Shown: positions 4,609-31,444 of the stretch, piece by piece | Numbering within the stretch: position 1 is the first letter of the stretch | Layout: every line of letters starts with the position of its first letter | Origin: a virus | Virus record (IMG/VR): IMGVR_UViG_3300049215_000243 | Span: 1-40,328 of that record | Length of the DNA: 40,328 bases | Strand: one strand, 5' to 3' | Made by a program: the position numbers and the translations under genes | Notes under the pieces: generated by a model | What the model was told of the DNA's origin: nothing | The model's input: only the letters and a program-made list of their open reading frames with translations | The model's database searches: none

Positions 4609-5787
4609 GTGACTAACTGGCCCTTGATGGACAACAACGTAACGCCCGAGGACATTTCAGCCCTCCGGTCGTTCCTCGATACGCCCGATGTGCGCCTGAC
4701 GAACGGTTCACAGGTAAGGGCGTTCGAGGAGGAATTCGCCGCGTGGTTGGGGGTGCGCTACGCCGTCATGGTGAATAGCGGCTCGTCCGCGAATCTCATC
4801 ACGATGCAGGCGCTGAAGATCCTGCATGGAGTAGAGCGCGTTCTGGTGCCGTGCATTACGTGGGTGTCAGACATCGCGGCGGTGCTTCACGCCGGGATGG
4901 AGCCGGTTTTCGTAGACGTTGACCCGGAGACGCTGGGAATGGATTGGACGACAGCGCAGCGAAAGGCGTCGTCCATGGATATCGCGGTATTCCCGACGCA
5001 TTGCCTCGGATTCAACGCGATGGTCGGCCCTCTTCCGTGCTTCCGAGACGATGGCAAGCACTATCAGCCGTGGGTTGTGGAGGACTGCTGCGAATCTCTG
5101 GGCGGCACAAGCGTGGCCGGATCGAGACATGGAACGCGCGGCCTCATGTCCAACTTCTCGTTCTACTACGCGCACCATATGACCACGATCGAGGGCGGCA
5201 TGGTGTGCACCGATGACGCGGAGTGCTATCAGACGCTGCGGCGCCTGCGATCGCACGGCCTCGTGCGCGAGATGGACGATCCCGAGCGCAGGGCGGCGTG
5301 GTCGGCTAACAATCCCTCCCTAGACCCGGAGTTCATCTTCACGCACCCCGCCTACAACGTGAGGCCGACCGAGATTAACGCGGTGCTGGGGCGCTCACAG
5401 TTGATGCGCTTGGACGAGAATAACGATAGGCGCACGCGCAATCTGAAGGCGTTCCTATCCATGCTCCACCCGTCGCGCTACCGGACACGGTATCGCACCG
5501 AAGGATCATGCAATTACGCGCTGCCGCTCATCCTGAACGCGCCTGACGACGATCTATTTAAGCGCGTACTTTCGACCCTGCGGGAACAGGGCATAGAGTG
5601 CCGGCGCGGCACGGCGGGCGGCGGTAATCAGTTGCGCCAGCCCTACGCAATCCACCGCTGGGGAGAGCTCTACAAGGAATTCCCCGAGGCCGAGTACATT
5701 CACCGCTACGGCCTTTATGTCGGGAACTATCCGACACTGGAATTGGAGAAGATCGAGCGCTTGTGCGAGGCGCTGTGGAGGCTATGA
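4609..5787 (+). CDS. DegT/StrS-fold sugar enzyme, ColD/RfbH-like 3-dehydratase
   Basis: The 392-residue protein has the full fold-type I sugar aminotransferase architecture: NSGSSANLITMQAL (cofactor phosphate/entry), PCITWVSDIAAV, VEDCCESLGG with D159 as the pyridine-nitrogen partner, and SFYYAHHMTTIEGGM. At the place of the Schiff-base lysine there is His189. That swap is the hallmark of the 3-dehydratases ColD (colitose) and RfbH/E1 (3,6-dideoxyhexoses), not of aminotransferases. The likely reaction is C3 deoxygenation of an NDP-4-keto-6-deoxyhexose with PMP; no Fe-S cysteine pattern is obvious, so it is closer to ColD. The GTG start includes the WPLMDNNVT segment typical of relatives; ATG 4627 is the alternative. 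Its stop overlaps the convergent radical SAM gene. Confidence 0.8.
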   Translation: MTNWPLMDNNVTPEDISALRSFLDTPDVRLTNGSQVRAFEEEFAAWLGVRYAVMVNSGSSANLITMQALKILHGVERVLVPCITWVSDIAAVLHAGMEPVFVDVDPETLGMDWTTAQRKASSMDIAVFPTHCLGFNAMVGPLPCFRDDGKHYQPWVVEDCCESLGGTSVAGSRHGTRGLMSNFSFYYAHHMTTIEGGMVCTDDAECYQTLRRLRSHGLVREMDDPERRAAWSANNPSLDPEFIFTHPAYNVRPTEINAVLGRSQLMRLDENNDRRTRNLKAFLSMLHPSRYRTRYRTEGSCNYALPLILNAPDDDLFKRVLSTLREQGIECRRGTAGGGNQLRQPYAIHRWGELYKEFPEAEYIHRYGLYVGNYPTLELEKIERLCEALWRL

Positions 5788-7230
5788 GATGATCTTGCGC
5801 TTCAGTTCCTGCTGCGTCATGAGCACGAGGTGAGCGCGTTCGTCGTAGCCGAACTTCTTCTCGATCATGGACAGGTAGGACGGCGCGCTGAAGTAGCGCA
5901 GGAAGGCGCGGTCCCTGAACCCCAGCACCTCCGCAGCGCTCAGTTGCTCCGTGGGCAGCGGTAACGTCTCGTAGGCGTGCTGGCTGTAGCCGATCCATCC
6001 AGGCCCTCCCGGGTCATCCGGCAGCGGCCAGCCCTTCGCCTTGGCCATCTCGTAGAGTTTGGACCCGGGGTAGGCCATGGCGGAGTAGAAGTTGGCGAAC
6101 TCGCAGTTAGCCTCGATCGCTAGAGACAGCGTTTCCTCCATCGAATCGTGCGTGTCGTCCGGGAGCCCGAAGATGTAGTTCCCGATGACGCTGATTCCGG
6201 CGTCCTGAACCTTCTTAACTACCTTGAGGATGTCCTCGTTCCCGAATCTCCCCTTCTCCGCGCCGTCCCTTACGTGCTTGGAGGCGGACTCGATACCGAG
6301 GGCGAGCCAGCGAAAGCCGGCGAGTCTGAGCCGCTCCAGGTATTCGTCCTTCACCGTGTCCACTCGGGCATAGGCCCAGATGTTGAGCGACTCGCCCAGC
6401 CCTCGGTTGATGATCTCGTCGCACACGCCCAGCACATGATTTCGGTGCAGCACGAACATCTCGTCCACGAATTTAACGTTCCTCACTCCGTACCCCATCA
6501 CCAGCAGCTCCAGTTCGTCGCCAACGGCGCGCGGCGACCAGCGGCGATAGGACGGGCCGCCGAAGGGCGCGTTGATGCAGCAGAAAGTGCAGCGATACGG
6601 GCACCCGAGCGTCGTGTGAATGGAGGCGTACGGCCCGCGCTCGGCCAAGTGCCCGAAGCAGTGCCAGTTGTGCGCTCGGTACTGATCCATCGGCAAGCGG
6701 TCCCACGCGCAGCCGGACATTTCTCCGTCTAGGTTCGCCACGTTCTCCCCCCTGATGATGGGGGGCAATGGGATCTCCGCGTCGAGGAACGCTATCGCCT
6801 GCCGGATGGCGTCTGGCCCCTCTCCGCTGCACACGCAGTCTACCGCCTCCTCGGCAAGCGTGCGTTCCGGCAGCGCGGCAGGATGCGTGCCGGTCATCAT
6901 GATTTTGGCCTGCGGGTAGCGCTCCTTGATTGCGCGCGCGATCGCGCCTGCTGCCGGCATGTTCTGGGTGCTCGCGGAGGGCTGGAATCCGTAGACGACG
7001 AGAACAACGAGGGTGGGGGCGTATGTCTCGTAAAGTTCTGCCACGGCCGGACCGTCCAGCGCCAAGGCGTGCGCATCCAGTATCTCGACGGAGCGACCCT
7101 TGTTGAGCAGATATCCAGCAAAGAGCGCGGCAAGAGATGGGGGCTCAACGGCGCTGAAGGCCGCGCCAAGTCCCTGGTAGACGCTCAGGCGGTTCCCCGG
7201 GTTGATCAGGAGGCAGTCGAGTTTCCTCAT
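5782..7230 (-). CDS. B12-binding-domain radical SAM protein
   Basis: The 482-residue protein has an N-terminal cobalamin-binding-like Rossmann region (LLINPGNRLSV, VVLVVYGFQ, MMTGTHPAAL, CVCSGEGP) and a radical SAM core with C210-P-Y-R-C214-T-F-C217 (CX3CX2C, binds the 4Fe-4S cluster), followed by FVDEMF and WLALGIESAS strands typical of the barrel. Relatives act as methyltransferases or in C-C and ring chemistry of lipids, sugars and natural products; the substrate here is unknown. The ATG overlaps the stop of the TPP protein gene (ATGA), so it is the last gene of a four-gene coupled unit. Its TAG lies inside the end of the convergent dehydratase gene (6-bp overlap). Confidence 0.85.
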   Translation of the reverse strand: MRKLDCLLINPGNRLSVYQGLGAAFSAVEPPSLAALFAGYLLNKGRSVEILDAHALALDGPAVAELYETYAPTLVVLVVYGFQPSASTQNMPAAGAIARAIKERYPQAKIMMTGTHPAALPERTLAEEAVDCVCSGEGPDAIRQAIAFLDAEIPLPPIIRGENVANLDGEMSGCAWDRLPMDQYRAHNWHCFGHLAERGPYASIHTTLGCPYRCTFCCINAPFGGPSYRRWSPRAVGDELELLVMGYGVRNVKFVDEMFVLHRNHVLGVCDEIINRGLGESLNIWAYARVDTVKDEYLERLRLAGFRWLALGIESASKHVRDGAEKGRFGNEDILKVVKKVQDAGISVIGNYIFGLPDDTHDSMEETLSLAIEANCEFANFYSAMAYPGSKLYEMAKAKGWPLPDDPGGPGWIGYSQHAYETLPLPTEQLSAAEVLGFRDRAFLRYFSAPSYLSMIEKKFGYDERAHLVLMTQQELKRKIIS

Positions 7231-7751
7231 GCGTACATCTCCGTGAATTCGACCAGCAGGGTGGATTTCCCATCCGGGCGATTGTAGGCGTGGCGGTAGG
7301 CTGGCCCTATGTCCTTGGGTGCGGTCAGTTGAATCACTTCCACGCTCTTTAGCATCCGGATGAAGGAATCGGAGAAGTTCCCATAGTGCTGCGCCTGCGG
7401 GTCCAGTGGCGTGCGCGAAGCAACGGCGGTGCGGATGATGACCTTGACCCGGTAGTCCGAATACTCGGATAGCTTGTTGAGGTGCAGAACAAGCTGGTTC
7501 GTCGCCAGCAGGAGGAAGTTCCAACGCGGGAATATGGTGATCGGCACGAAACCAGAGAGCGCGAGGCCCGTGCTCATGCCCATCTGCGCGTCCTCTATCA
7601 CGGGTAGTTCCAAGCGCTTTTCCTCTGGCACCCCTTGCAGGGTGGTGAACATCGCGGTGCCGGGGCATCCGACCGACTGCCCGAGGAAGTAGGTATCCTG
7701 CTTCTCGCCTAGCCACTTCATGGCGGCGGTGAGTTCGTCGGAGTAATTCAA
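7227..7751 (-). CDS. TPP-dependent enzyme, E1-beta/transketolase PYR domain only
   Basis: The product (174 residues) corresponds to the pyrimidine-binding domain of E1-beta/transketolase proteins: LPVIEDAQMGMSTGLALSG contains the conserved cofactor-activating Glu (E53), followed by VPITIFPRWNFLLLATNQLV and VKVIIRTAV. Ordinary E1-beta subunits are about 325 residues with a second C-terminal domain, which is absent here: the protein ends with the strand TLLVEFTEMYA. The start is inferred as a TTG at 7751 that overlaps the alpha stop (TTGA); no ATG lies nearer. It would pair with the upstream PP-domain protein to form an active site. Confidence 0.75.
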   Translation of the reverse strand: MNYSDELTAAMKWLGEKQDTYFLGQSVGCPGTAMFTTLQGVPEEKRLELPVIEDAQMGMSTGLALSGFVPITIFPRWNFLLLATNQLVLHLNKLSEYSDYRVKVIIRTAVASRTPLDPQAQHYGNFSDSFIRMLKSVEVIQLTAPKDIGPAYRHAYNRPDGKSTLLVEFTEMYA

Positions 7752-8368
7752 AATTGCACCCGCTTGCCGGCCCCCGCGTGCGGCCACGGCAGTTTGTAGG
7801 CGTAGTATCGGTTGAAGTACTTGAGCCCCGGGCTGGACGTTCTCCATGCAGAATAGGTGTCGGTGCACACGGAGAGCCCGTTGTCTTCCGTGACGAAGAC
7901 GATCGGCAGGTTGTGGGTGAACGAGTAGGTCATGCACTCGTGCGCGATGCCGGTCATGCTCGTCATGTCGCCCATGAACGCCCACACGCGGGACTCTTCG
8001 CCCGAGCGCTTGATGCCCATGGCGATGCCCACGGCGATGGGGAGAATGCCCCCTACGATGGCCGAGGAGATCACCCGCTGCCGAGGGAAGCAGAGCGATA
8101 TCGACTTTCCTGACATGATGGCCGCGCGCAATTCTTCCGGCGGAACGCCTTTCAGCAGGCAGTGATAGTGCAGGCGCCACGAGCCGCAGACCCAGTGCGA
8201 TGGCTTGATCTCCTTGAAAATGTCGATCAGTTGCTGCTCGTTGCCGCCGCTTAGGTGCACGGGCGCCCTGATGCGACCCGCGTTGAACTGCTCTGCGATG
8301 TCCTGCTCGAACGCCTTCAGGGATTCGACAAGGCGATCGTTCACCATGTCCTCGCCGTCGTACATCAT
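7748..8368 (-). CDS. TPP-dependent enzyme, E1-alpha-like PP domain, short form
   Basis: The 206-residue protein resembles pyruvate/acetoin dehydrogenase E1-alpha: HLSGGNEQQL, SWRLHYHCLLKGVPPEEL, SSAIVGGILPIAVGIAMGIK, then the diphosphate/Mg motif GDM (133-135) ... EDN (161-163), a variant of the canonical GDG...NN. Normal E1-alpha is 320-400 residues, so this is a minimal form that stops soon after the metal motif. Ketol or acyl transfer from a ketoacid or ketose to a sugar or aldehyde is a plausible reaction given the neighbours, but is inference. The ATG overlaps the glycosyltransferase stop (ATGA). Confidence 0.75.
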   Translation of the reverse strand: MMYDGEDMVNDRLVESLKAFEQDIAEQFNAGRIRAPVHLSGGNEQQLIDIFKEIKPSHWVCGSWRLHYHCLLKGVPPEELRAAIMSGKSISLCFPRQRVISSAIVGGILPIAVGIAMGIKRSGEESRVWAFMGDMTSMTGIAHECMTYSFTHNLPIVFVTEDNGLSVCTDTYSAWRTSSPGLKYFNRYYAYKLPWPHAGAGKRVQF

Positions 8369-9282
8369 GCGGCCATCTTCATGCCGATGCGGTCAAGGAC
8401 TTGCGCCCAGAAGTGAGCCGGCGTGTGCGCCGCCAGCACGCGCTCGCGCAGCGAGAACGCCATGCGCTGCGTCTCATCCGGGCGCTCAGATAGCTGTCTG
8501 ATGATCGAGACCGCGTTCTCTGGCGACTCGTATTCCAGATAGTCGATCCCCGGTCGGAACCAGTAGGAGGTGGGCGCGCCCTTGGTCTCCAGCAGGAGTG
8601 CGCCAGCGAGCCCGGACTCGACTACCCGGCCCTTGACCTGCAACGCCGCCTCGGTCCCAGAGAACGAGGTGTTGAAGCTCATCCGGCAGTTCTGCAGGAA
8701 ATCGCAGTAGGCGTCGTAAGTGTGGGGGAGGTTCGTCCTCCCGCGCATGTCAAGCGCGCGCTCCTGCAGCATGGCGGCGAGGAAGTCGGTGCGCTTCGTT
8801 CCCGGCCCCCCGCCCGCGTTGCCGCCGTAGCCGGCGCGGATACCGCGTTCCTCGTGCGGCCGAAGCCCGAGCGGAAAGGATGCCGGGTCAACGGGCGTCA
8901 GCGCGGTCATCTGGGTTGAGGAAAGCGGCCACTTGTGCGAGCCGTCTATGGCGATCTGGAGCGAGAAGCACCCGGCAGAGTGATAGTCGCGCAGGAGGTC
9001 GAACCACGGCGGGTCTGCCGCATCCGAGCACAAGTGCACCATCGGGGCTATCTTCTCGTTGATCTGGGAGAGACAGGAGATCGAGGGCTGCTTGCCCCAG
9101 CGCGAGCCGATGTAGACGACAAAATCGGGCTTGGCTTCCCGAATCTTTCCCCACAATACCTGATCCGATGAGGACAGCTCGTCATAGCGCAGCACGTCAA
9201 CGGAGCCATGATTGAGTATGCGCAGGCTGTCGGCGTACTTGAGTACTTCGTTCGTTCCGGTAATGAGGAACAGGCTACGCAC
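8365..9282 (-). CDS. Glycosyltransferase, group 1 / CgeB-like (GT-B fold)
   Basis: A 305-residue protein. The C-terminal part, with KGRVVESGLAGALLL followed by YWFRPGIDYLEYESPENAV and a helix SIIRQLSERPDETQRMA, is the usual nucleotide-sugar-binding half of GT-B enzymes related to CgeB/Glyco_trans_1_2. The N-terminal half has Rossmann-type strands (DFVVYIGSRWG, PMVHLCSDAADP). It starts at a GTG that overlaps the preceding 40-residue gene and ends in an ATGA overlap with the E1-alpha-like gene. It is likely to transfer the sugar made by this block to an acceptor, which cannot be named. Confidence 0.75.
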   Translation of the reverse strand: MRSLFLITGTNEVLKYADSLRILNHGSVDVLRYDELSSSDQVLWGKIREAKPDFVVYIGSRWGKQPSISCLSQINEKIAPMVHLCSDAADPPWFDLLRDYHSAGCFSLQIAIDGSHKWPLSSTQMTALTPVDPASFPLGLRPHEERGIRAGYGGNAGGGPGTKRTDFLAAMLQERALDMRGRTNLPHTYDAYCDFLQNCRMSFNTSFSGTEAALQVKGRVVESGLAGALLLETKGAPTSYWFRPGIDYLEYESPENAVSIIRQLSERPDETQRMAFSLRERVLAAHTPAHFWAQVLDRIGMKMAA

Positions 9283-10271: not shown

Positions 10272-10806
10272 GGTCTCTCAATGTCGATGCTAAATCGTCG
10301 CCGCCTGCAGATGCTTCGGTCGAACCTGCGAGGCGGGCTGCTGCGGCCAACTTCACCTGGTTCTGCGCGCTGTTCTCGTCAATCGGCATGGTGGCAAGCT
10401 CGTGCAGCGCATCAAGACCGGCAACGCGGTAAAGAGCAGTTCTTTCTTCAATTGCCCGCTCAACTTCAGCGCGTTCGATTCCTTTCCATTTTACGGGCAT
10501 CGCCTCGATTGCCGCCGATAGTACAGGCGATACTTGAATCGCTCTGTTTAAACGCAGAGCGGTAGTCTTCAAAAGCTGGGAAGCAATGAAGATATCCCCG
10601 CGCGCGTCCAGCAGCGCGTCCTTGATCCCTGCCTCGGTGAACTGGTAGAGCGGAGGCGGCGCTATGTACGGCTCAGTAGCGCAGCCCCCTGGCGTAACCG
10701 AGTTTCTGGATTCTGGGGAGCCGTTCGACGAGTTTCCCTCGTCCGATATCGGTGCGCCATCCGGGGTTGCCGGGGAGGTGGATTTTCCCGAGTGTCGTGT
10801 ACGCAC
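10156..10806 (-). CDS. Small terminase-like HTH protein (putative)
   Basis: A 216-residue protein with a disordered Ser/Pro-rich N-terminus (1-45), then a helix-turn-helix-like segment, FTEAGIKDALLDARGDIFIA continuing ASQLLKTTALRLNRAI, of the type seen in phage small terminase and Fis-like proteins. A helical oligomerisation-like region follows (ERAEVERAIEERTALYRVAG, QNQVKLAAAARLAG). The only usual start before the HTH is a GTG at 10806, so it must overlap the end of the ATP-grasp gene by 134 bases. Its own end overlaps the convergent plus-strand gene. A role in recognising phage DNA for packaging is inferred; a general DNA-binding protein is the alternative. Confidence 0.5.
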   Translation of the reverse strand: MRTRHSGKSTSPATPDGAPISDEGNSSNGSPESRNSVTPGGCATEPYIAPPPLYQFTEAGIKDALLDARGDIFIASQLLKTTALRLNRAIQVSPVLSAAIEAMPVKWKGIERAEVERAIEERTALYRVAGLDALHELATMPIDENSAQNQVKLAAAARLAGSTEASAGGDDLASTLRDLNREYQESAPRLRLVRERTTTERLLVETEPSERPVSEQ

Positions 10807-12016
10807 TGCGCCGCGCTCCTGTGATCGTCTCGCCGCAACCCGTGACTATAAGCACGTAGTCGCCTGCTGTCACGTAGCAGGGCATATCGAGCACCTTTCC
10901 GCCCACCAGGCACGGAACCTCCGCCACCATCACCTGTGACAGATGCACGTCCTTCGCCGCGGCGCCGTTCAGGTAGATCGGGATGCCGCACGTTTCCTTG
11001 CTCGTCAGGTGCGAGTAGGGGTAGTCGGGTATCGATACGACCACCGATATGCACGGCTCGTCAAAGCGAACGGTTCTCGTGTCACGCCCGTTCAAAAGGT
11101 CGACCATCCACTGTGCTGGATCGCCTTCGTGCAGCGCCATGTGATTGTGGGTGGCGGGCCAACCTTCTCTCATCGTAAACTCCAATGGCCACGGTACGCC
11201 CTCGTCATCGATGATGCTGTTAACGCTCACGCACCCGATGTAATCTATCTCGCGAAGGGCGGAGGTAAGTGGCTTGAGAAGCTTCTTCGCGAGGAGCGAT
11301 TCCTGAACGAACCGGATAAGCGTTCCCTGCTCGCCGGTATTCACGCCCAAATCGCCGTTCATCAACTTCTTGAACTCGAAGTTCTCTTCCCAGTAAGCGC
11401 ACCAGCCGCCCGGACCGAACCAGCCCGAGACGCCCATCTCGCAGCCGGTTTTCTTCTCCTGCATGATGAACCCGTGCTTCGCGGCGTCAGCTCGATGCTT
11501 CTCGTCCGCCTGCCACTTGGCTAGCATGTACACCATGTCGGCGGCGTTCTCGGAGACGTAGGAGAGCGCCTTGTCCGCGTCCCCTGATGGCTTGGAGACC
11601 ATGGCGCGCCCCTCGCGCTTCACGTATGCGATCGCCGCGGCGTAGTCGTGGAACTCTCGCCCCGGAATGATCTTGAGGCCGGCGTTCTTCATGATTTTCT
11701 GGCCGGCCGCTCGATCGAGTTCCCACGCGGCCGCGGCGGAATTGGTGCCGTAGATCGGATAGCCGATTCTGCGGTATGACTCCAGCCGGTCGAGATACAT
11801 ATCGTTGCCGGGAAGATAGATGAGATCCGCCCAGCCCAGCCACTTGTCCCACAGCGCATCGTAGTCGGTGATGAGTTCTACGAGCCCCTGGCCGCACTGC
11901 TTTTGCTCGCCGCCCTTGCCGGGCCGGTTGAACCAGCGCACGTCGTGCCCGTGCCGCTCGGCGCGCATGAGGAAGTCGAGCGCGCTGGAGTCGGTATCGA
12001 TCGCAAGGATCTTCAC
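10673..12016 (-). CDS. PurD-like ATP-grasp ligase
   Basis: A 447-residue protein with glycinamide-ribotide synthetase architecture: an N-terminal Rossmann part (MKILAIDTDSSALDFLMRAE), ATP-grasp strands (RAMVSKPSGD, GFIMQEKKTGCEMGVSGWF, the metal-binding-like region IGCVSVNSIIDDEG..WPLEFTMREGWP), and a C-terminal domain with VLIVTGCGETITGARRSAY, which closely resembles the PurD C-domain. ATP-grasp enzymes join a carboxylate to an amine, forming an acyl-phosphate intermediate. The position between virion genes and the small-terminase-like gene argues for a late-phase substrate (peptide, cell wall or nucleotide) rather than simple purine synthesis, but that is inference. Confidence 0.75.
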   Translation of the reverse strand: MKILAIDTDSSALDFLMRAERHGHDVRWFNRPGKGGEQKQCGQGLVELITDYDALWDKWLGWADLIYLPGNDMYLDRLESYRRIGYPIYGTNSAAAAWELDRAAGQKIMKNAGLKIIPGREFHDYAAAIAYVKREGRAMVSKPSGDADKALSYVSENAADMVYMLAKWQADEKHRADAAKHGFIMQEKKTGCEMGVSGWFGPGGWCAYWEENFEFKKLMNGDLGVNTGEQGTLIRFVQESLLAKKLLKPLTSALREIDYIGCVSVNSIIDDEGVPWPLEFTMREGWPATHNHMALHEGDPAQWMVDLLNGRDTRTVRFDEPCISVVVSIPDYPYSHLTSKETCGIPIYLNGAAAKDVHLSQVMVAEVPCLVGGKVLDMPCYVTAGDYVLIVTGCGETITGARRSAYTTLGKIHLPGNPGWRTDIGRGKLVERLPRIQKLGYARGLRY

Positions 12017-16349: not shown

Positions 16350-16610
16350 TCAGATAACGCCCATCTGGTGCAAAAAAAGCATTGCCGAAGCCATGGCCGA
16401 GATGACGTAGACCGACACCTTGAACGCGGTCTTGAGAAACTTCACGATATTGAGTACCTCGTCCACGCATGTGTGCAGTTTCTCCACGTCACGGCGCAGC
16501 GGCATGAACTCGTCCCTCCGGAATTCCCGGAACGACTTCACCGTGCACTCGACCTGCTCGGTGAGCCCGTCCAGCGTGATCGAGCGCCGTTCCTGTCCCA
16601 AGTAAGTCAC
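16350..16610 (-). CDS. Holin-like single-TM small protein (putative)
   Basis: An 86-residue product from the GTG at 16610, which overlaps the upstream glycosyltransferase stop (GTGA); a longer frame would run far into that gene. It has a charged helical N-terminal half (FREFRRDEFMPLRRDVEKLH) and one C-terminal transmembrane helix (VSVYVISAMASAMLFLHQMG). Single-span proteins with this layout serve as holins, spanin parts or membrane anchors. No endolysin gene is adjacent, so the lysis role is tentative. Confidence 0.45.
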   Translation of the reverse strand: MTYLGQERRSITLDGLTEQVECTVKSFREFRRDEFMPLRRDVEKLHTCVDEVLNIVKFLKTAFKVSVYVISAMASAMLFLHQMGVI

Positions 16611-17272
16611 GCTGCCTTGGCCCGCATGGCGGAGGACACACGAGCCCGCGCGCGCTCGAACTCTCCTCCGATAAGCCAAATGCGGTAAATGTCGTGGAAC
16701 CCGAAACTCCGCTGACGGGCGAGCTGATAGGTGCGGTCGTCTTCGGCCGTTCCCCAGATCGGGTTCAAATGCGTGTAGACGAGATCGGGGCGATAGGACA
16801 GCAGGCCCATGCGCTTTCCGAATTCACCCCACACAACGTCTATTCCCCAGTGCTCGAAATTCGGGGGAGAAAGATAGCCTATCGAGCGCACGAGATCGCC
16901 CCCGATGCACGGCATCGTGGGGATCAGTTCTCCGTGGTGCTGGTCGTTCGAGTAGGCGATGTGCCAGTTGCCCGCGCTTCGCTCCAGCTCGGCGAGCATA
17001 CCTGGCGTATTCAGCAGCACATCGTCGGCGAGAAACCCGTAATTCTCCTCGTCCGGGTAGCGCCTCAGAATCTCGTTATAGGTGGGGCCGTTACCGAGCA
17101 TGGGCACGATCTCGATGTGCCAGCAATCGGGCCACTCCTGCGCCAAGTAGTCCCGGAGCTTCGGGTCTTTCTCGTAGAGGGTGAGGAGCACGCTCGAGTG
17201 CCCGCCCCACGAGTAGGAGTCAACGGTGTCCCTGATCCGGCCGGGACGGCCTAATGAAGTGAGAATCCACAT
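16607..17272 (-). CDS. Glycosyltransferase-like protein next to tail spike (GT-A type)
   Basis: A 221-residue protein with GT-A features: an N-terminal strand WILTSLGRPGRIRDTVDSY, a VPMLGNGPTYNEIL segment, a FLADDVLL strand carrying an acidic DD in the DxD position, and a C-terminal VYTHLNPIWGTAEDDRTY with His and acidic residues. Such enzymes are recurrent in phage virion modules. It overlaps the spike gene and the holin-like gene. The likely job is glycosylating a virion or cell-surface component; donor and acceptor unknown. Confidence 0.65.
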   Translation of the reverse strand: MWILTSLGRPGRIRDTVDSYSWGGHSSVLLTLYEKDPKLRDYLAQEWPDCWHIEIVPMLGNGPTYNEILRRYPDEENYGFLADDVLLNTPGMLAELERSAGNWHIAYSNDQHHGELIPTMPCIGGDLVRSIGYLSPPNFEHWGIDVVWGEFGKRMGLLSYRPDLVYTHLNPIWGTAEDDRTYQLARQRSFGFHDIYRIWLIGGEFERARARVSSAMRAKAA

Positions 17273-21700: not shown

Positions 21701-22179
21701 CAGTGAATCCTGCCGCCGTGTTTGCCGGAGAAGATTGCGTTCGTGGCCTTGCGATAGGCGTTCTCGTTGGTGCCGAAGACGTTCGCCTCGTGCGCTTCGA
21801 GCCTGTACACGACGTCCTTCACGACTCGCACCTGATCGATGTCGAGCGTGTAGGTAAGGCCGTGCTGCAGCGCCTCGCCGTTCAGCATGATCTGCACGCC
21901 GCCCACCGGGGGCATGTTGATCTTCAACTCGAAGGTCGGGATTTCCGCCTCTTCCCACACCTGAAAGTCTTCGTCCTTCTCCCACGGGTTCTTGCACTTG
22001 CGGCGCTTGACGGTTTTCCCGGTGGGGATCGCTTCGGCGCCGTTACTGAAGAATGCGGCGCGCTTCGCCGCCTCGTCGTTCCTGCTCTCGGAGACGACGA
22101 GTTTCGCATTGAGGGCGTCGATCTCGGCCTGCAGGGCCGCGATCTGCTCGTCCTTAGAGAGTTGCGGGGCTTGGCTCAT
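21700..22179 (-). CDS. Head-module protein with N-terminal coiled coil
   Basis: A 159-residue protein. A coiled coil occupies the first 40 residues ([20 protein letters not shown]), followed by a basic patch ([15 protein letters not shown]) and a beta-rich domain ([39 protein letters not shown]). It ends GKHGGRIH. It starts in an ATGA overlap with the end of the major capsid gene. Role unknown; a minor head protein is likely. Confidence 0.6.
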
Positions 22180-23600
22180 CAGGTCAGCACCGTCCCGGCG
22201 CTATAGCCCGGCGTGAAGGCGCTCGAAGATTCGATACGCATGAAAAACGCCTGATTGAGAATGATGCTGCCGTAGAACACTTTCCACGACACCACGCGCG
22301 TCTGGTTGAGCGGGTCGGACTTGTCCGCGCCGGTCAGGTAGTTGAACTCCGGGTTCTCCAGCAGCACCTGGCCGTAGCTGTGGTTGCCGATGACGATGGT
22401 CGGGAAGACCGAGACGCCGGTCGCGGGCGCGGCGGGCGGGGTCTGCGCAGCGCCTATGCCGGTGATGACCACGGTGGAGCCGGAGGGGAGCTGCGTAGCC
22501 TGTCCGGCAAGCGGTCCGGTCGAGGGGCCGGAGGCCGACAGGCCGAGATTGGTCGGCGTCGCGCTCGTGCCGATGTAGACGTTGAACACGTAGTTGGCGA
22601 GCGTGGGCAGCACCACCGTGATCGAGCCCTGACCGGCTCCGCCTACGACGACGCCCGCCGATACCTGGTAGATGCGCTGCTCAACCGATGTCTGCGCGGG
22701 CGCGCCCGTGATCTGGATGAAATAGGTGTTCGCCGCGAGTGCGCCGCCTTGCGTGGCCCCGGTGTTCGTCGCCGGGTCTGCGACGCCCACGAAGTAGGGC
22801 ACCATGTTGCTCTTGCAGAAACGAACACCGCCCCACTCCCCCAGATCGTTGTTGTAGAGGCGGTTAACGTCGGACTGCGCCCAGGCGTTCGCGACCGTCG
22901 CATTGGACTTCATGTCCTGCACCGGCAGCGGGTGGATCAACGCCACATAGTGCTGCATGACCGCAGGCGAGCGACTCATGTCCTTGCGGGTGCCGGCCTC
23001 GATCATGAGGTCTTCGCGCTCATCCCCCATGAAGTGCGGTACGCCGTAGGTTTCCATCGAGCCCACCGCGCGATAAATCTCGGTGGGCGATAGCACATCC
23101 GTGGCAACGAGCAGCGCACGGCTCGCGCGAGAATTCACGTAGTTGATCTGATTCCCGGCGAGGAGCGTCTGCATGGTGTTGCGCTCCAGCGTCTCTGGCA
23201 TCTGCAGGGATACCAGTTGTATCGCTTGCTGGAAGAGCGGGTGCTTGATCGTCAGGTTGGCGACATCGGTGATCCGCACGAGATCGCCCCACTGCTGGGC
23301 GGTCGCGGTCACCTGGGAGAGCGACATCGATTCCCCGGGCGGCGCAACACCTTCCTGCAGCGCAGCGTAGGGGAGCGGCAGGCGCTCGTAGCGCGATGCG
23401 GTGTAGGTCGTGCCGCGGTTGATGTCCAGACGCAGGGGCTTGCCGAACTGGTAGGCGACGAGTTGGCGCCTTGCCAGCGGCTCGACTTCCTCCTGAATGT
23501 AGGCTTCTACATCGGACTGAAAGCCTGATGCAGAGTTGGTCACTCCGGGATGGAAGAGCGCGCCGATAAAGCCAGCGATAACGGTGAGTTTGCTGTTCAT
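22179..23600 (-). CDS. Major capsid protein, N4 gp56-like, with inserted beta domain
   Basis: A 473-residue protein with the N4-gp56 family signature: [20 protein letters not shown], then [40 protein letters not shown] and [15 protein letters not shown] hydrophobic N-terminal helix ([12 protein letters not shown]) precedes the fold. Between about residues 285 and 400 a Gly/Thr/Val-rich segment ([20 protein letters not shown] and on) looks like an inserted Ig/fibronectin-like surface domain that basic family members lack. The C-terminal P-domain strand [20 protein letters not shown] is conserved. A strong AGGAG precedes the ATG, fitting high expression. Confidence 0.85.
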
Positions 23601-23609
23601 GAACTGCTC

Positions 23610-24338
23610 CTAGATCTGCTGGTTTTCCAGCCGCTGGACGCGCTTTTGATGCTCGGTCAGTGCGGCACCGCGCCCCGACACGTCGGATTTGACTCCGGGG
23701 GTTTTTCCTCGATTCACCACCGGCGCGCTCTGCGCAGCCTTCTTCTTTCTTGCCTCTCGCGTGTCATTGCCGATCATGTAGGTGTAGACCGCCTCGCGTG
23801 AAGGGTTCTGACCGGCCGCGCGCGCGCGCTTCAACTCTTCCTCGACGCGGGTTTCGTAGCGCTTGGCCATCGGGTCGGACAGGCACAACGCCGAGAAGGC
23901 CGCCTTGTCCGACATGTCGTAGGACTGCGCGTAGGACTGCTGCGCCAGCGCCTCGGTCTGCCGAATGCGGCGGTTCGCCCCGACCGTCCATTTTTGCTCG
24001 GCGGTGGAATTGGGGTCGCGCAGGATCGCTTCCTCGCGCTCCCACTCCTCGTTGACGGCCGGCTTGGCTTGGCGCGCTCGCGCATCGGCCATCTCGCGCT
24101 CGTAGCGGTCGGCGCGCTCCCGGTCTCGGGCGCGGCCCTCTTTCTCGGCGGCGAGCTCCGCAGCAAGGCGCGCGGCCGGATCGTCTGCGGGCTGCGGTTC
24201 TTCCGGCGAGGGCTCTCCTTCGATTTCCGGCTCGTCCGCCGGGGGATCGTCGGCCGCGGAAGGTTCGGCCGGCGAATCCCCCGGGGCCTCGGCGGCTGGG
24301 CGAAGGAGGAGGAGCAGGAGCTCGAGCAGGCGGCTCAT
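23610..24338 (-). CDS. Scaffold protein
   Basis: A 242-residue, highly charged protein directly upstream of the capsid gene, the usual scaffold position. After a hydrophobic start (MSRLLELLLLLLRP) come a Pro/Glu/Asp-rich disordered region, a long helix (LAAELAAEKEGRARDRERAD), and a basic C-terminal helix (LTEHQKRVQRLENQQI) suited to contact the capsid shell. ATGA overlap with the upstream gene. The leucine-only start is unusual for a scaffold. Confidence 0.75.
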   Translation of the reverse strand: MSRLLELLLLLLRPAAEAPGDSPAEPSAADDPPADEPEIEGEPSPEEPQPADDPAARLAAELAAEKEGRARDRERADRYEREMADARARQAKPAVNEEWEREEAILRDPNSTAEQKWTVGANRRIRQTEALAQQSYAQSYDMSDKAAFSALCLSDPMAKRYETRVEEELKRARAAGQNPSREAVYTYMIGNDTREARKKKAAQSAPVVNRGKTPGVKSDVSGRGAALTEHQKRVQRLENQQI

Positions 24339-24817
24339 AGGGAAAGCGCTCCGATGCTGGTCAACTGAACGGTGGACCCGAGTACGCGCATCATCATGAG
24401 GCGCGCGGTGCTGGTCTGCACGAGCGCGCTACCGAGCACCGATGTCATCGCGTCCGCGGCCGTCACCGTGCCAGTCTGCCCGGACTGGTTGCTGAAAATG
24501 ATTGGCTTCCAGAAACTCCCGTCCGTGGGCAGCGTCGTATTCGCGCTCAAGGCGTTCAAGATGTCGGTGGTGGATGGCAGCGTGATATTGAAGCCCGCGC
24601 CCGCTCCCGAATTCAATTGAATGAAGCCCTTCCTGATGTCGGTGCCGCTGATCGCCGGGGCCGGAGAAGTGGTGTAACTCGCCATCGCGGCGGCGTAACT
24701 GTTCGCGTTGTGCATGAACCCGAACAGGCCCCACTCTCCGGTGCGGTCGGGCTCGATCCCGCGCGGCACCGGGAAAATCGACGCCGGTCGCAGCAGAGCC
24801 ATCAGAAGAGAAATCAT
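24335..24817 (-). CDS. Beta-rich head protein, paralogue 1
   Basis: A 160-residue protein starting MISLLMALLRPASIFPVPRG; the ATG overlaps the glycosyltransferase stop (ATGA). The C-terminal half is beta-rich and Thr/Ser-rich and ends LVQTSTARLMMMRVLGSTVQ. This matches the end of the protein encoded at 25479-26039 (IASNATRLFLGQVTGSAAVT), so the two are paralogues. Together with the head-gene location this suggests a decoration or capsid-surface protein. No named family. Confidence 0.6.
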   Translation of the reverse strand: MISLLMALLRPASIFPVPRGIEPDRTGEWGLFGFMHNANSYAAAMASYTTSPAPAISGTDIRKGFIQLNSGAGAGFNITLPSTTDILNALSANTTLPTDGSFWKPIIFSNQSGQTGTVTAADAMTSVLGSALVQTSTARLMMMRVLGSTVQLTSIGALSL

Positions 24818-25482
24818 GCCGCCGCCTCCTCGACCATCTGCGGGATGTGCGCGTGGGTGTAGTGGAACAGCCCGATGTGCCCCACCTGACGGGAGAGTTC
24901 GTGGTCTATCAGGATGTCGATCCCCGCGTCTTCGAGTCTCTTGCAGAAGAACCAGTCCTCTCCGACGAATGTCGCGTGTTTGTCGGAGTAGCGCACCTCG
25001 AACCACGGCTTCTCGATCTTCGAGAGCACCGAAAGCTCCAGCAGAAAGATGCCGGCGCCCACGCGCCACACTTTCTCCAGCCCCATCGCGTCGTTGCGGT
25101 TCGAGTACACCGGAGACCCGAATGGAGAGGCGTTGCGCGCTCGCGCGGTCGGGAATGAGGGCAGCGTCTTCAGCGGAATATTGCAGCCCACGAAGGGCTT
25201 CTTCCAGCGGATGAGCCGGTGCACCGTGTCCATCGGGAAAGTCTGGTCGGTGTCGAGAAAGAGCGCGTGGGTGCAGTCCTGCAGAATCGCATCCTCCAGG
25301 CACTCCTGACGCGAGCGCGGCAGGTTCGAGGTGCGGCGCTCAACGAAGATCATGTCTCGGTTCTGCCCCTCCTCGAATAACGCCGATGCGCAGTAGACGC
25401 ACATCTGGGCGAGACAGATACCGAATTCCGCGTGGAAGAACCCCGCGTGGGGCACGCAGATGGCGACTTTCGTGTAGCTCAT
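24814..25482 (-). CDS. Glycosyltransferase, GT-A with DxD, head module
   Basis: A 222-residue protein starting MSYTKVAICVPHAGFFHAEF. It has the typical phage GT-A pattern: VERRTSNLPRSRQECLEDAI, CTHALFLDTDQTFPMDTVHR with the DTD metal motif, PFVGCNIPLKT, RVGAGIFLLELSVL and FVGEDWFFCKRLEDAGIDIL (catalytic E-D region), then LSRQVGHIGLFHY with metal-ligand His. The ATG at 25482 overlaps the upstream stop (ATGA). It lies between two paralogous beta-rich head proteins, which are candidate acceptors. Confidence 0.8.
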   Translation of the reverse strand: MSYTKVAICVPHAGFFHAEFGICLAQMCVYCASALFEEGQNRDMIFVERRTSNLPRSRQECLEDAILQDCTHALFLDTDQTFPMDTVHRLIRWKKPFVGCNIPLKTLPSFPTARARNASPFGSPVYSNRNDAMGLEKVWRVGAGIFLLELSVLSKIEKPWFEVRYSDKHATFVGEDWFFCKRLEDAGIDILIDHELSRQVGHIGLFHYTHAHIPQMVEEAAA

Positions 25483-26039
25483 AGGCCCGTGGTGTTGGTG
25501 TAGCCGGTGCCGTTGCCCCACTGGAAGAGGCTCGTGATCGTGACCGCCGCGGAGCCGGTCACTTGACCAAGGAAAAGACGGGTCGCGTTCGAGGCGATGG
25601 TCGCGGTGCCCGCGATGGTGACCCCGGTACCAGCCGCAAGCGTGCCGATGCCCGAGCCAAGGTTGGCAACGAGAAAGGGAAAGGTCTGGTTGACGATCGC
25701 CCCGGGGATAGCGGCGATGATGTTCGCCGCGGTGTCGGTGGAGTCGGTGTAGTTCGCGGCCGGGCTGAAGCGTCGGATGATGCCGCAGGGGAGCTGATTG
25801 CCCTGATAGGTCGCCGCGGCCAGATTCGGCACCAGCGTGGAGGTCCAGTTACCGAAGGCGGGCGAGCCGTTCGTTGCCAGCGACTGCAGCGCGGTCGCCA
25901 AGCCCGCGTAATCGGACATCGCGCCCTGCTGGCCCGGGACGGTGGCCGCTATCGAGGCGGGGCCGGTCTTGATCGGGGTAATCAGGGGTCGAAAGAGAGC
26001 TGCTACGAGAGTACCGATCAGGCTGGCGGCAAAATACAT
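25479..26039 (-). CDS. Beta-rich head protein, paralogue 2
   Basis: A 186-residue protein from the ATG at 26039, which has an AAGGAG 8 bases upstream. The start is hydrophobic (MYFAASLIGTLVAALFRPLI), then a Gly/Thr/Ala-rich beta protein with VTIAGTATIASNATRLFLGQ followed by VTGSAAVTITSLFQWG. The tail is homologous to the product of 24335-24817. The hydrophobic start could be a membrane or capsid-targeting helix. Probably a virion surface protein. Confidence 0.6.
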   Translation of the reverse strand: MYFAASLIGTLVAALFRPLITPIKTGPASIAATVPGQQGAMSDYAGLATALQSLATNGSPAFGNWTSTLVPNLAAATYQGNQLPCGIIRRFSPAANYTDSTDTAANIIAAIPGAIVNQTFPFLVANLGSGIGTLAAGTGVTIAGTATIASNATRLFLGQVTGSAAVTITSLFQWGNGTGYTNTTGL

Positions 26040-26099
26040 CGAATTCTCCTTCGGGAGCGGCCGATTTCGTAAGAAATGTAGGCGCAATCCCAGATTATG

Positions 26100-26495
26100 T
26101 CAAATGAGGCGGCTGATGCGCTCGGATAGCGGCGGGTGAAACGGCCCCGGCGCAGAGCGCAGGCGCGAGAAGGCGCTGGCGAGCGCCAGCCCGCGGCCGG
26201 CGGAGCGCACGAAGTTGTCCGCCTCGTATTCCTGCGCGCGACAGAGCCCAGCGACAGCCCACGGCCGGGTGAGAATCGCGAGAATTCGGCGTTCCACGTG
26301 GAACCGCAGGCAGTGCCCGGCCTCGTGCAGCAGTAGCGCCTGCTGCTCGGCTGGGGGAAAGCGGAAAAAGTCCGGTCCCACCACGATTTCCTTCCAGCGC
26401 CAGATGCCGCGCGAGTCGCATATCACGCGAGCGGCAGGCGAGAAGCGCACCGGTATGCCCAGACACGGCTCAATCGTCTTCGTCGTCGCCTTCAT
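26100..26495 (-). CDS. M48-like zinc metallopeptidase
   Basis: A 131-residue protein from ATG 26495. It has LLLHEAGHCLRFHVERR with HEAGH at 57-61 (two His ligands and the catalytic Glu) and AQEYEADNFV with E91 as the expected third zinc ligand. A HPPLSERISRL end (from residue 120) matches the His-Pro-x-x-x-x-R-I motif that closes M48 (Ste24/HtpX-type) domains. It has no membrane helices, so it is a minimal soluble form. Location among head genes suggests a virion-associated lytic or maturation protease. The start overlaps the acidic small gene by 26 bases. Confidence 0.7.
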   Translation of the reverse strand: MKATTKTIEPCLGIPVRFSPAARVICDSRGIWRWKEIVVGPDFFRFPPAEQQALLLHEAGHCLRFHVERRILAILTRPWAVAGLCRAQEYEADNFVRSAGRGLALASAFSRLRSAPGPFHPPLSERISRLI

Positions 26496-26583
26496 CCGGG
26501 TCCAGGGGATAGGTGAGCTCGGCATCCCAAGGGTATTCTTCCGCTGGGTCATAGCCGGTGTCGCGCGCGTCCTCGGGCATCAT
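26470..26583 (-). CDS. Very acidic 37-residue protein
   Basis: Translation gives MMPEDARDTGYDPAEEYPWD followed by AELTYPLDPDEGDDEDD. Nearly half of the residues are Asp or Glu. It starts in an ATGA overlap with the preceding gene and overlaps the M48-like gene, which supports a real coupled gene despite its size. It may be an inhibitor or partner of the peptidase (inference), or a DNA-mimic-like acidic peptide. Confidence 0.45.
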   Translation of the reverse strand: MMPEDARDTGYDPAEEYPWDAELTYPLDPDEGDDEDD

Positions 26584-28127: not shown

Positions 28128-28850
28128 TCAGCCTGCGTGCGCTCCGCCGGCGTTGATCATGCGCGCGAAGCGGTGCGCCCACGGCGTGGCACCACCCCCA
28201 CTTGATGCCTTGAATGCTGCTATGGCGAACTCGACAGCAGCGGCGCCCCCGTCCGTAGACCAATTGGGGTTCTCTGTCGCGGTGACGACTTTGTATGCCG
28301 CCTGCACGCCGAAACTCACGCCCGCGTTGGTGCTGAGGTCAGCGAACTTGGTGAACAAGGAATCTATCGAGCGCGTCCCACTCGCCTGCTCGAAGAGCCC
28401 GCCCGTGAAGATCACATCACCACCGGCTACTGAGCCGGCCGCTATCGATGATGCGCTGGCGCTGGTTGCGCCATTCTCGGCGGAGAACGGAGAGGACGTA
28501 TCCACGCCGGAAAATCCGGCCACGGCCAGAGATGCGAAACTCCCGGTTTTCAGCGCGCTGAATGTCATCGACGCGCTAACCGTGGGATTTATGGCGTAGT
28601 AAATACGCGCCGCACCAGACACCGCAGCGGTGCGCGTGGTAAGCGCATTCCAGGTATTCACTCCAGTGCTGTCGCTAATCGTCGGAGCGCCACCGGAATT
28701 CAGGAAGTCGGTCACCAGAGAGACAAAGTTAGCTCCAGTGAAATCCTTTGCGCCCGTGGTCGCGCCCCCGCTGTTGCCTTGGGCTGATGCGCTCTGGACG
28801 AAGGCTACCGCCATGAGAACCGCCAGTATGAGCAGGCGCAGATTGCGCAC
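28128..28850 (-). CDS. Phage protein with Sec signal peptide
   Basis: A 240-residue protein with a clear signal peptide: basic start MRNLRLLILAVLMAVAFVQS, then ASAQG with cleavage expected after ASA. The mature part is Ser/Ala/Gly/Thr-rich and beta-like (SAARIYYAINPTVSASMTFS, FASLAVAGFSGVDTSSPFSA, WSTDGGAAAVEFAIAAFKAS) and resembles carbohydrate-binding or adhesin-like phage domains, though no family is certain. Export across the inner membrane is unusual for a gene in the head module. It may act in the periplasm or on the cell surface. Confidence 0.65.
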   Translation of the reverse strand: MRNLRLLILAVLMAVAFVQSASAQGNSGGATTGAKDFTGANFVSLVTDFLNSGGAPTISDSTGVNTWNALTTRTAAVSGAARIYYAINPTVSASMTFSALKTGSFASLAVAGFSGVDTSSPFSAENGATSASASSIAAGSVAGGDVIFTGGLFEQASGTRSIDSLFTKFADLSTNAGVSFGVQAAYKVVTATENPNWSTDGGAAAVEFAIAAFKASSGGGATPWAHRFARMINAGGAHAG

Positions 28851-29245: not shown

Positions 29246-31444
29246 TTAGCCGCGCGGCGGTCCCACGCCCTGATCGGGGCCGGGAAGACCGGGCGGATTT
29301 TGCATGGCGTTTCTCGGTCCAGCCGGTGCTGCGCCCGGGCGCGGCTGGCCGGGCACGCCCGGACCGCCACCGCCCGGCACACCGGGTGCGCCGGGCTGGG
29401 GCTGCTGCTGGCGCTGCAGTTTCGCCTGCATCGCCATCGTGTGCATTGCGATGTGCGCGCGGAAACGCCCGTACGGATCGCCCGTCAACTGCGCGCCCTG
29501 CGTGTGCTCGATGATGTGGCGCTGGTCGTCGTCGGCCTCGTGCACCTGAACGGCCATGTTGTTGTGCATCATCAGGTTCTCGGTCTCAGCGGGGACCGTG
29601 AAAAGATTTCGCTCGTCGATCAGAATTTTCGGTCCCATCTCCGGGCCGTAGAGACCCTCGACGAACTGCTCTAGGATCGGGGTCACATCGAGCCTGCGCC
29701 CGTTCATCTGCTGGGGCGGGATGCCGCGCAGCACGTTCATGCCGGCGATTCGCATCTGCTGCAACTGCTGGCTTTGCACGATGGATGTTCCCGCCCACAT
29801 GAACTGATAGCGCTGCTCGAAACTCTTGGGATCAACCTCGGTCATCTTGGCTTTGACCCCGATCTCGCCGCGCTGCTCGACTAACACCTTGGTTGTGCGA
29901 AATTGGCGCTCGTACTCGAACAGGCGCTCCGCGAGCGGGGTGAGCATCGCCTCCTCGTAGCGCTCGGCGTTGTCCATGATGTTCGCCATCTGGTCCATCT
30001 GGAACTGCCCCATCAACTGGTTGTTCTTGCGCCCCGGGGGCATCCTGCCCATCATCATTTCGTTCACATCCATCGATTCCCAGATCTGGCGCTTGATGCC
30101 GTCGCAAATCTGGTAGGAGTCCTTGTAGAGCTGGGGCTGCGTCAACGGCTTGATAGCGTCCGGGGCGATCGGCCACACCGCCGCCAACCCCATCACCATG
30201 GAAGCCCACGTAGGATTTTTCTCCGGGTCCGCCGCCCAGATGGGCAGCAGGGAATACATGGCGGAGTCCTGCCCCATGTTCCAGAAGTCATTCAGGTTCC
30301 ACTGCAGGAACTTGACGGGCTCTACTTTGGAGACCCCGAAGAAGGAGCCCTTCACGCGCTCGACCGGGGCGGAGATGATCGGGCGCTTCCCGCCCCACTG
30401 CGGGGCCTTGAGAATGCCGAGAATCCGCTCCTGCGAGGCGAAGTAGATGTAGGAAAGCCGCGATACGGTGCCTTCGTCTTCCTCGAAGTCGAGCCGCGCG
30501 GTGGTTTCGTAGACGAGCAGGTATTTGTCCGCGCCGTTGGTCTTTATGCCGGCCGCATTGGCGCGCGCTTTGGGCGGCACCTTACGATCCATCGTCGCAT
30601 CCGGGTTAGCCTGCTTCTCCAGGTCCTCCCAGAGTTGGTCGGCGGTTTCTCCCTCGCGCAACACGAAGACCCCCTCATCGATGAATTCCTTCACCCGCTC
30701 CTTCGACAGCCGAAGGCGCAGCGTCACCGAGAGCGCGCGCTCGATGTCGTTCTCCGTGGGCGGCACCACCGCCAAGTCCTCGGTGGCGAAGTCCACCACA
30801 GTAGGGCCTTCTTCGAGCACGTCGGATTCCTCGGTCGCCTCCTCCTCCTCGGTGGGATCGATGAGCGAGACTTCCTCGCCCTCGACGGAATCGAGCGCGG
30901 GGTTTCGCTTGATGAGTTCCGTTATGCGCCGGTAGGATTTCGTCCAGTCGATGTAGAGATTCCACTGCCCGGTGACATCCCCCGCGACGAGATCCGAGCG
31001 CACGATCTCCTTCAGCCTCAACGAGCGCACATCGTGCTCAAGGAGCGCGAGTTGCGCGTAGGGGGTTTCCGGGTCGGAGCCCACCGCCTCGATGTGGCGG
31101 TGTCGGGAGGGGAAGAGTTGCTTTAGCGTGCGCTTAGCGCGCGCGTTCACGCAGTCACGAACCGCGGGGATGTAGCACTGGGAGTTGCCGTTGTACTGCT
31201 GATTGGTGTCGGGGCGGCAGGAAAAGATATTCCAGTATTCCTCCAGCCTGTCGCACTGCTCCTGCTTGCCCTCGTAGGCGGACTGGATGGCGCGATAGAG
31301 TTTCGCCGCCTGCTTGTATACTTCCGCGCCCTCGTCTTTCGCGAAGTTCTCTACCTGCTCGCCGGTCTCGAGCGCGCCCGGGGCTGCCAGCGAATCTACG
31401 CGCGCGGCCGGGGCGGATTCCTTTTTTTCGGGGCGCTGGGCCAC
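29246..31444 (-). CDS. Portal protein (P22-like podovirus type)
   Basis: The 732-residue protein has the layout of P22-group portal proteins: a helical N-terminus (KLYRAIQSAYEGKQEQCDRL, EYWNIFSCRPDTNQ), PAVRDCVNARAKRTLKQLFP, the wing/stem region FLQWNLNDFWNMGQDSAMYS, SYQICDGIKRQIWESMDVNE, MMMGRMPPGRKNNQLMGQFQ and a long Gln/Pro/Gly-rich C-terminal tail. Length and order (large terminase, small genes, portal) agree. An acidic insert near residues 197-225 (EGEEVSLIDPTEEEEATEES) is notable. Confidence 0.8.
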   Translation of the reverse strand: MAQRPEKKESAPAARVDSLAAPGALETGEQVENFAKDEGAEVYKQAAKLYRAIQSAYEGKQEQCDRLEEYWNIFSCRPDTNQQYNGNSQCYIPAVRDCVNARAKRTLKQLFPSRHRHIEAVGSDPETPYAQLALLEHDVRSLRLKEIVRSDLVAGDVTGQWNLYIDWTKSYRRITELIKRNPALDSVEGEEVSLIDPTEEEEATEESDVLEEGPTVVDFATEDLAVVPPTENDIERALSVTLRLRLSKERVKEFIDEGVFVLREGETADQLWEDLEKQANPDATMDRKVPPKARANAAGIKTNGADKYLLVYETTARLDFEEDEGTVSRLSYIYFASQERILGILKAPQWGGKRPIISAPVERVKGSFFGVSKVEPVKFLQWNLNDFWNMGQDSAMYSLLPIWAADPEKNPTWASMVMGLAAVWPIAPDAIKPLTQPQLYKDSYQICDGIKRQIWESMDVNEMMMGRMPPGRKNNQLMGQFQMDQMANIMDNAERYEEAMLTPLAERLFEYERQFRTTKVLVEQRGEIGVKAKMTEVDPKSFEQRYQFMWAGTSIVQSQQLQQMRIAGMNVLRGIPPQQMNGRRLDVTPILEQFVEGLYGPEMGPKILIDERNLFTVPAETENLMMHNNMAVQVHEADDDQRHIIEHTQGAQLTGDPYGRFRAHIAMHTMAMQAKLQRQQQPQPGAPGVPGGGGPGVPGQPRPGAAPAGPRNAMQNPPGLPGPDQGVGPPRG

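What the first reader, a model, noticed from the sequence alone, without database searches (positions are those of the whole stretch)
24335..26039. Glycosyltransferase sandwiched between two paralogous beta-rich head proteins
The flanking proteins share the C-terminal TARLxxxxVxGSxxxxTS pattern and are Ser/Thr-rich. A duplication with a GT in between, all coupled by ATGA, suggests that the GT modifies these proteins. Capsid glycosylation is rarely described.
Basis: partly seen in the sequence, partly recalled or inferred. Interest (0 to 1): 0.65.

Follow-up and report, generated by a model that had tools for sequence, protein, structure and literature searches.

The report
Sugar-transferase inside a phage head operon
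This phage carries a sugar-attaching enzyme gene inside its capsid-building gene cluster, between two related capsid-surface proteins; it probably decorates the virus particle with sugar, but comparison with over a hundred relatives does not support those two neighbours as its specific targets, and it shows instead that the capsid proteins share an unexplained common N-terminal tag.

Summary
Gene order on the minus strand is A (25479-26039), glycosyltransferase GT (24814-25482), B (24335-24817), scaffold-like gene, major capsid protein (MCP); the first three junctions are ATGA overlaps. A and B are true paralogues in their C-terminal domain. GT is a GT-A enzyme: DxD, GED and HxG motifs; its model matches collagen galactosyltransferase and STIV A197. 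A resembles a capsid spike.
The claim that GT modifies A and B is not supported specifically. In 81 GT loci outside this clade A and B are absent, yet GT lies within 1 kb of the MCP in 74 of 75 measurable cases. In 46 clade members the GT is missing while A/B-type genes usually remain. Their Ser/Thr content is higher without GT. The recurrent partner is the head module, so a virion acceptor (MCP or a surface protein) is the best reading; it is inferred, not shown. Capsid glycosylation by phage GTs is known in mycobacteriophages, with GTs not detectably related to this one.
A more unusual feature surfaced: MCP, scaffold, A and B, otherwise unrelated, share a hydrophobic N-terminal leader whose motif matches within each genome. 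It co-occurs with an M48-type metalloprotease gene; four outgroups lack both.

The parts
25479..26039 (-). Protein A, 186 aa: hydrophobic leader plus C-terminal beta domain (capsid-spike/decoration type)
   Evidence: phrog_673 head and packaging E 2.7e-11, 9 of 10 orthologues; AlphaFold model, residues ~60-170 confident; best PDB match Pa223 capsid spike E 3.3e-4; similar domain in many viral surface proteins
24814..25482 (-). GT-A glycosyltransferase, 222 aa (phrog_1574)
   Evidence: Invariant R58, D77xD79, E175-D176 and H202 in 29 sequences; GED and HxG complete in the closer set; Anp1 20/29; Foldseek COLGALT1 1.1e-9, STIV A197 1.5e-8
24335..24817 (-). Protein B, 160 aa: leader plus C-terminal domain paralogous to A
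   Evidence: Reciprocal profile matches between A and B families; orthologues hit phrog_673
23610..24338 (-). Scaffold-like acidic protein with leader
   Evidence: Position directly upstream of MCP, acidic; no family hit of its own
22179..23600 (-). Major capsid protein with leader
   Evidence: phrog_1357 major head protein E 4.4e-34; 374 relatives in IMG/VR
26100..26552 (-). M48-type metalloprotease (HEAGH, third ligand in EYEAD)
   Evidence: Peptidase_M48 above gathering score; 15 of 17 relatives; profile vs PDB Ste24p E 8.5e-10; invariant HExxH and ExxAD
25986..26039 (-). Leader of A: MYFAASLIGTLVAALFRP
24785..24817 (-). Leader of B: MISLLMALLRP
24297..24338 (-). Leader of scaffold: MSRLLELLLLLLRP
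23547..23600 (-). Leader of [21 protein letters not shown]
29246..31444 (-). Portal / head-tail connector, upstream boundary of the head module
   Evidence: phrog_332 E 3.1e-8

Best explanation
The middle gene encodes a small metal-dependent GT-A glycosyltransferase that belongs to the head module and is made together with the capsid proteins. It most likely transfers a sugar from a nucleotide-sugar donor to a protein on the virion, either the major capsid protein or surface spike/decoration proteins such as A and B. Enzyme class and head-module linkage are shown here; the protein acceptor, the donor and the biological benefit (shielding, adsorption or stability) are inferred.
For: All catalytic GT-A motifs are kept across 26-29 diverse members. 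Fold neighbours are enzymes or viral proteins tied to protein glycosylation: COLGALT1, LH3, STIV A197, mimivirus R699, ppGalNAc-T2, Mnn9. The family is found in head modules of at least three gene orders: A-GT-B-scaffold-MCP here; MCP-small gene-GT-tail adaptor in most; MCP-GT in Microcystis phage Mel-JY34. GT lies within 1 kb of the MCP in 74 of 75 measurable loci, median gap 374 bases. A has a capsid-spike-like fold. The window also carries a DegT aminotransferase and two other GT-type genes, so sugar metabolism is present.
Against: No acceptor is identified. Gene adjacency can reflect timing of expression only. The family also occurs in cyanomyovirus and archaeal-virus records away from a recognised MCP. 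It is dispensable: 46 clade members lack it. Fold neighbours with protein acceptors are partly a property of what is in the PDB. No homology was detected to the Che8 GTs linked to capsid glycosylation, although only single sequences were compared.
Confidence: 0.6

Rival explanations
1. One reading: the GT specifically glycosylates its two neighbours A and B, and the A/GT/B triplet is a dedicated substrate-enzyme cassette.
For: The A-GT-B order with tight coupling is kept in all GT-carrying members of the clade, including L102 and L106/L175; A and B are surface-type beta proteins.
Against: 81 GT loci outside the clade hold no A or B; A/B persist without GT; Ser+Thr medians are 19.1/19.4% with GT and 23.4/22.2% without.
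Confidence: 0.2
2. The GT modifies the host surface (O-antigen or other envelope glycan), for example for superinfection exclusion.
For: Many phage GTs do this (general knowledge); another GT-type gene lies at 8365-9282 beside sugar genes.
Against: It is locked into the late head module in unrelated phages. No transmembrane flippase or anchor partner was seen nearby, as expected for gtr-type seroconversion cassettes.
Confidence: 0.12
3. The GT modifies phage DNA bases.
For: DNA glucosylation exists in phages (general knowledge); a GARS-like ATP-grasp gene and other odd enzymes lie in the window.
Against: No base-hypermodification enzyme was recognised in the proteins scanned; location in the head module; fold neighbours are not DNA GTs.
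Confidence: 0.05

Closest known systems
Mycobacteriophage capsid glycosylation (Che8 gp110, Corndog gp38, Myrna; summarised in PMC12363180, original Freeman et al. 2023 not readable here)
   Same: Tailed phage encoding its own GTs, proposed acceptor a virion protein
   Different: Che8 GT genes lie at the far end of the genome, away from the MCP; no sequence similarity detected to gp109 or gp110; acceptor shown there, not here
STIV A197 glycosyltransferase (PDB 2c0n)
   Same: Small viral GT-A protein; sequence profile E 1.5e-4 and Foldseek E 1.5e-8, TM 0.59 on target
   Different: Archaeal virus of another lineage; not in a tailed-phage head operon
Collagen hydroxylysine galactosyltransferase COLGALT1 / LH3 GT domain, and Mnn9 (Anp1/GT62)
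   Same: GT-A fold, DxD region, significant fold match
   Different: Eukaryotic, larger; acceptors collagen or mannan
Pseudomonas phage Pa223 capsid spike (PDB 9ny6)
   Same: Fold match of the A C-terminal domain, E 3.3e-4, probability 1.00
   Different: 7% identity, TM-score 0.33; A also carries a hydrophobic leader
T4 capsid targeting sequences and gp21 prohead protease (PMC9026906); SPN3US propeptides (PMC10052503)
   Same: Several different head proteins share short N-terminal sequences tied to assembly and processing
   Different: Known proteases are serine type cutting after Glu; here the leader is hydrophobic ending in FPG, FRP or LG, and the only candidate is an M48 metalloprotease

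Membership tests
GT-A glycosyltransferase | DxD metal-binding motif | tested here: met
   D77xD79 invariant in 29 sequences
GT-A glycosyltransferase | Catalytic acidic (x)ED motif and C-terminal HxG | tested here: met
   E175-D176 and H202 invariant in 29; G174 and G204 at 90% or more there and invariant in the closer 26
GT-A glycosyltransferase | Rossmann-like GT-A fold | tested here: met
   Model pLDDT 86, pTM 0.85; 137 PDB matches at E up to 0.001, the listed ones nearly all GT-A enzymes
Phage capsid-glycosylating GT (Che8/Corndog type) | Homology to Che8 gp110 or gp109 | tested here: not met
   hhalign E 0.28 and 0.096, probability below 1%
Phage capsid-glycosylating GT (functional class) | Sugar on virion proteins that depends on the GT | not testable with these tools
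   Needs mass spectrometry and a deletion
Capsid decoration/spike protein (A, B) | Head-module gene with spike-like beta domain | tested here: met
   phrog_673, Pa223 spike fold match, synteny
Capsid decoration/spike protein (A, B) | Presence on virion surface | not testable with these tools
   Needs virion proteomics or cryo-EM
M48 peptidase (26100-26552) | HExxH plus downstream Glu zinc ligand in ExxAD | tested here: met
   H76, E77, H80, E108, A111 and D112 invariant in 17; Pfam 15/17
Prohead protease | Cleaves head proteins during maturation | not testable with these tools
   Only co-occurrence with the leader was seen
Prohead protease (known fold classes) | Serine protease of the herpesvirus-related or ClpP/S49-type folds | tested here: not met
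   The candidate is an M48 zincin; no classical prohead protease was recognised by Pfam or PHROGs in the window proteins scanned

The most novel reading that the evidence does not exclude
In this group of Burkholderiales-associated phages the MCP, scaffold and spike proteins carry a common hydrophobic N-terminal leader ([FL]-x-[PL]-[GA]-[VI] type) that acts as a shared assembly or processing signal, and the adjacent M48 zinc metalloprotease is a new class of head-maturation protease that removes it; the GT then decorates the resulting shell.
Probability: 0.3. Interest if true: 0.85.

Novelty: new variant of a known kind. Interest (0 to 1): 0.55.

Why it matters
Phage-encoded glycosylation of capsids has been shown for only a few phages. 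A GT family, annotated so far mostly as unknown (phrog_1574), that is fixed beside the MCP in many environmental phages would make virion glycosylation far more widespread and directly testable. Separately, a leader shared by unrelated capsid proteins together with a metalloprotease would be a new route of capsid maturation, and cultured Paraburkholderia strains carry prophages in which to test it.

Tried and rejected
Single-sequence searches of A and B in viral contigs and phage records found nothing; alignment queries were needed. Sequence profiles of A and B gave no PDB relative. Ser/Thr enrichment of A/B as support for acceptors was tested and rejected. MCP residues that distinguish GT+ from GT- genomes were listed but are confounded by descent, so no acceptor site is claimed. 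Homology to Che8 GTs was tested and not found, as was homology to the window's second GT at 16607-17272. Corndog was not in the collection under the accessions tried, and the Freeman 2023 paper was not held. A literature search for an M48 or zinc head protease found no paper.

Full report
1. What is there. The window is a 40,328-base viral record. On the minus strand the order is portal (29246-31444), several small genes, an M48-type gene (26100-26552), A (25479-26039), GT (24814-25482), B (24335-24817), an acidic scaffold-like gene (23610-24338) and the MCP (22179-23600). A/GT, GT/B and B/scaffold overlap by ATGA, read directly from the sequence.

2. Are A and B paralogues? Alone the two window proteins align weakly (E 0.002). 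Four-sequence profiles align over 98 columns of the C-terminal domain at E 2e-5 with probability 77%. With six genomes the A profile picks up the B proteins of L011 and L010 at 4e-13 and 4e-11, and the B profile picks up all A proteins at 1e-6 to 1e-10. Against 5000 shuffled B sequences only L011, L010 and L003 B rank above every shuffle; the window's own B does not. The link is therefore made through intermediates. A and several B orthologues hit the same family, phrog_673.

3. What are A and B? The A model is confident for about residues 60-170, a beta domain, with a helix at residues 2-20 and a disordered stretch between. Its only significant PDB match is the capsid spike of Pseudomonas phage Pa223 (E 3.3e-4, probability 1.00, but TM-score 0.33). 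In predicted viral structures the domain is common in uncharacterised phage proteins, collagen-like proteins and fibre-type proteins. A surface spike or decoration role is therefore likely, but location on the virion is not shown.

4. What is the GT? Its family is phrog_1574, unknown function in PHROGs (29 of 29 members). Twenty of 29 match Pfam Anp1, others GT2-type families. Invariant residues include R58, D77, D79, E175, D176 and H202. The profile matches Mnn9 (1.8e-5) and STIV A197 (1.5e-4) in the PDB. The model (pLDDT 86) matches COLGALT1 (1.1e-9), LH3, A197 (1.5e-8), mimivirus R699 and ppGalNAc-T2. It is a GT-A enzyme; donor and acceptor are not known.

5. Context across relatives. Where genes could be placed, the GT sits in the head module: mostly portal-scaffold-MCP-small gene-GT-tail adaptor, in a smaller group MCP-GT as in Microcystis phage Mel-JY34, and in the window's clade A-GT-B-scaffold-MCP. 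In 81 GT loci outside the clade none has A, B or M48; in 74 of 75 with a measurable MCP the gap is at most 1 kb, median 374 bases. More distant members occur in cyanomyoviruses and an archaeal-virus record, near structural genes but not beside a recognised MCP.

6. GT presence within the clade. MCP queries gave 374 viral relatives and 8 loci in bacterial or archaeal genome records, including cultured Paraburkholderia. On an MCP tree GT occurs in the window's group of seven, in L106/L175 and in L102, always between A and B, and is absent in 46 other members. Presence at the base with later losses is the simplest reading, but it was not formally separated from repeated gains. Several GT-less genomes keep A and B directly adjacent (for example L100, L105, L111, L169). 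So A and B do not need the GT, and the GT family does not need A and B. Ser+Thr content of A and B is lower, not higher, in GT carriers.

7. Conclusion on mechanism. Shown: GT-A enzyme; head-module linkage in unrelated architectures; A and B are paralogous head-type proteins. Inferred: the acceptor is a virion protein. The MCP is the partner common to all arrangements; A and B remain possible in this clade. Published precedent: mycobacteriophages glycosylate capsid and tail-tube proteins with their own GTs (PMC12363180). The GT here shows no detectable similarity to Che8 gp109/gp110, so it is not filed as a member of that family.

8. The shared leader. A, B, scaffold and MCP all begin with a short hydrophobic stretch ending in FRP, LRP or FHP. 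A position matrix trained on three of the families and tested on the fourth puts nearly all held-out leaders in the top 2% of 2107 N-termini; that background includes the leaders themselves, and one B leader (L003) fails. The MCP body is about 90% conserved while the leader varies. Across about 65 distinct relatives the motif is of the P type (LFPG, FRP) or L type (FLTLG), and MCP and scaffold of one genome agree in 75 of 76 cases; MCP and B agree in 40 of 43. The classes were assigned partly by eye with starts chosen by script, and only three well-supported independent changes exist (none going the other way, p 0.25), so shared descent is not excluded as the cause of the match. Other genes between M48 and B also carry such leaders in some genomes.

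9. The M48 gene. It has HExxH and ExxAD invariant in 17 members, Pfam M48 in 15 of 17, and a PDB profile match to Ste24p at 8.5e-10. It lies between portal and A/B; 54 of 55 loci with a hit keep HExxH. Four outgroup genomes (L187-L190, MCP 53-61% identical) lack M48, A and B, and their MCP and scaffold lack the leader. These four are one side of a single branch, so co-occurrence rests on one evolutionary event. [quoted passage not shown] The leader plus M48 pair works like that on paper, but cleavage is not shown.

Noticed in passing
window 22179-26552; L096-L186: MCP, scaffold, A and B share a hydrophobic N-terminal leader whose motif type matches within each genome (75 of 76 for MCP versus scaffold); leader and M48-type metalloprotease gene are both absent in outgroups L187-L190.
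   Followed up: partly
window 4609-9282: Cluster of DegT/DnrJ sugar aminotransferase (+ strand), B12-binding radical SAM enzyme, TPP-dependent E1-like protein and a GT-1-type glycosyltransferase (- strand); may make or use an unusual sugar.
   Followed up: no
window 16607-17272: Second glycosyltransferase-like gene (phrog_14945, E 1.5e-19) in the tail region, not detectably related to the head-module GT.
   Followed up: partly
window 10673-12016: ATP-grasp protein resembling phosphoribosylamine-glycine ligase (GARS); role in a phage unclear.
   Followed up: no
L185 9235-10359: A gene downstream of the head module (374 aa) also starts with a leader of the same type (LLAYFCPGILG), so the tag may extend beyond head-shell proteins.
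   Followed up: no
L131, L137, L149 MCP start: The MCP open frame in these three loci reads differently right after the leader start (MKYLKKLGLLWALTLQTIISFF...), suggesting a frameshift, insertion or misplaced start.
   Followed up: no
L183, L184, L186: Relatives lie in genome records of Paraburkholderia phenoliruptrix, P. sp. BL25I1N1 and P. tropica (leader and M48 present, no GT), pointing to Burkholderiales hosts and to strains usable for tests.
   Followed up: partly
window 28128-28850: Gene between portal and the head cluster begins with a classical signal-peptide-like N terminus (RNLRLLILAVLMAVAFVQSASAQ).
   Followed up: no
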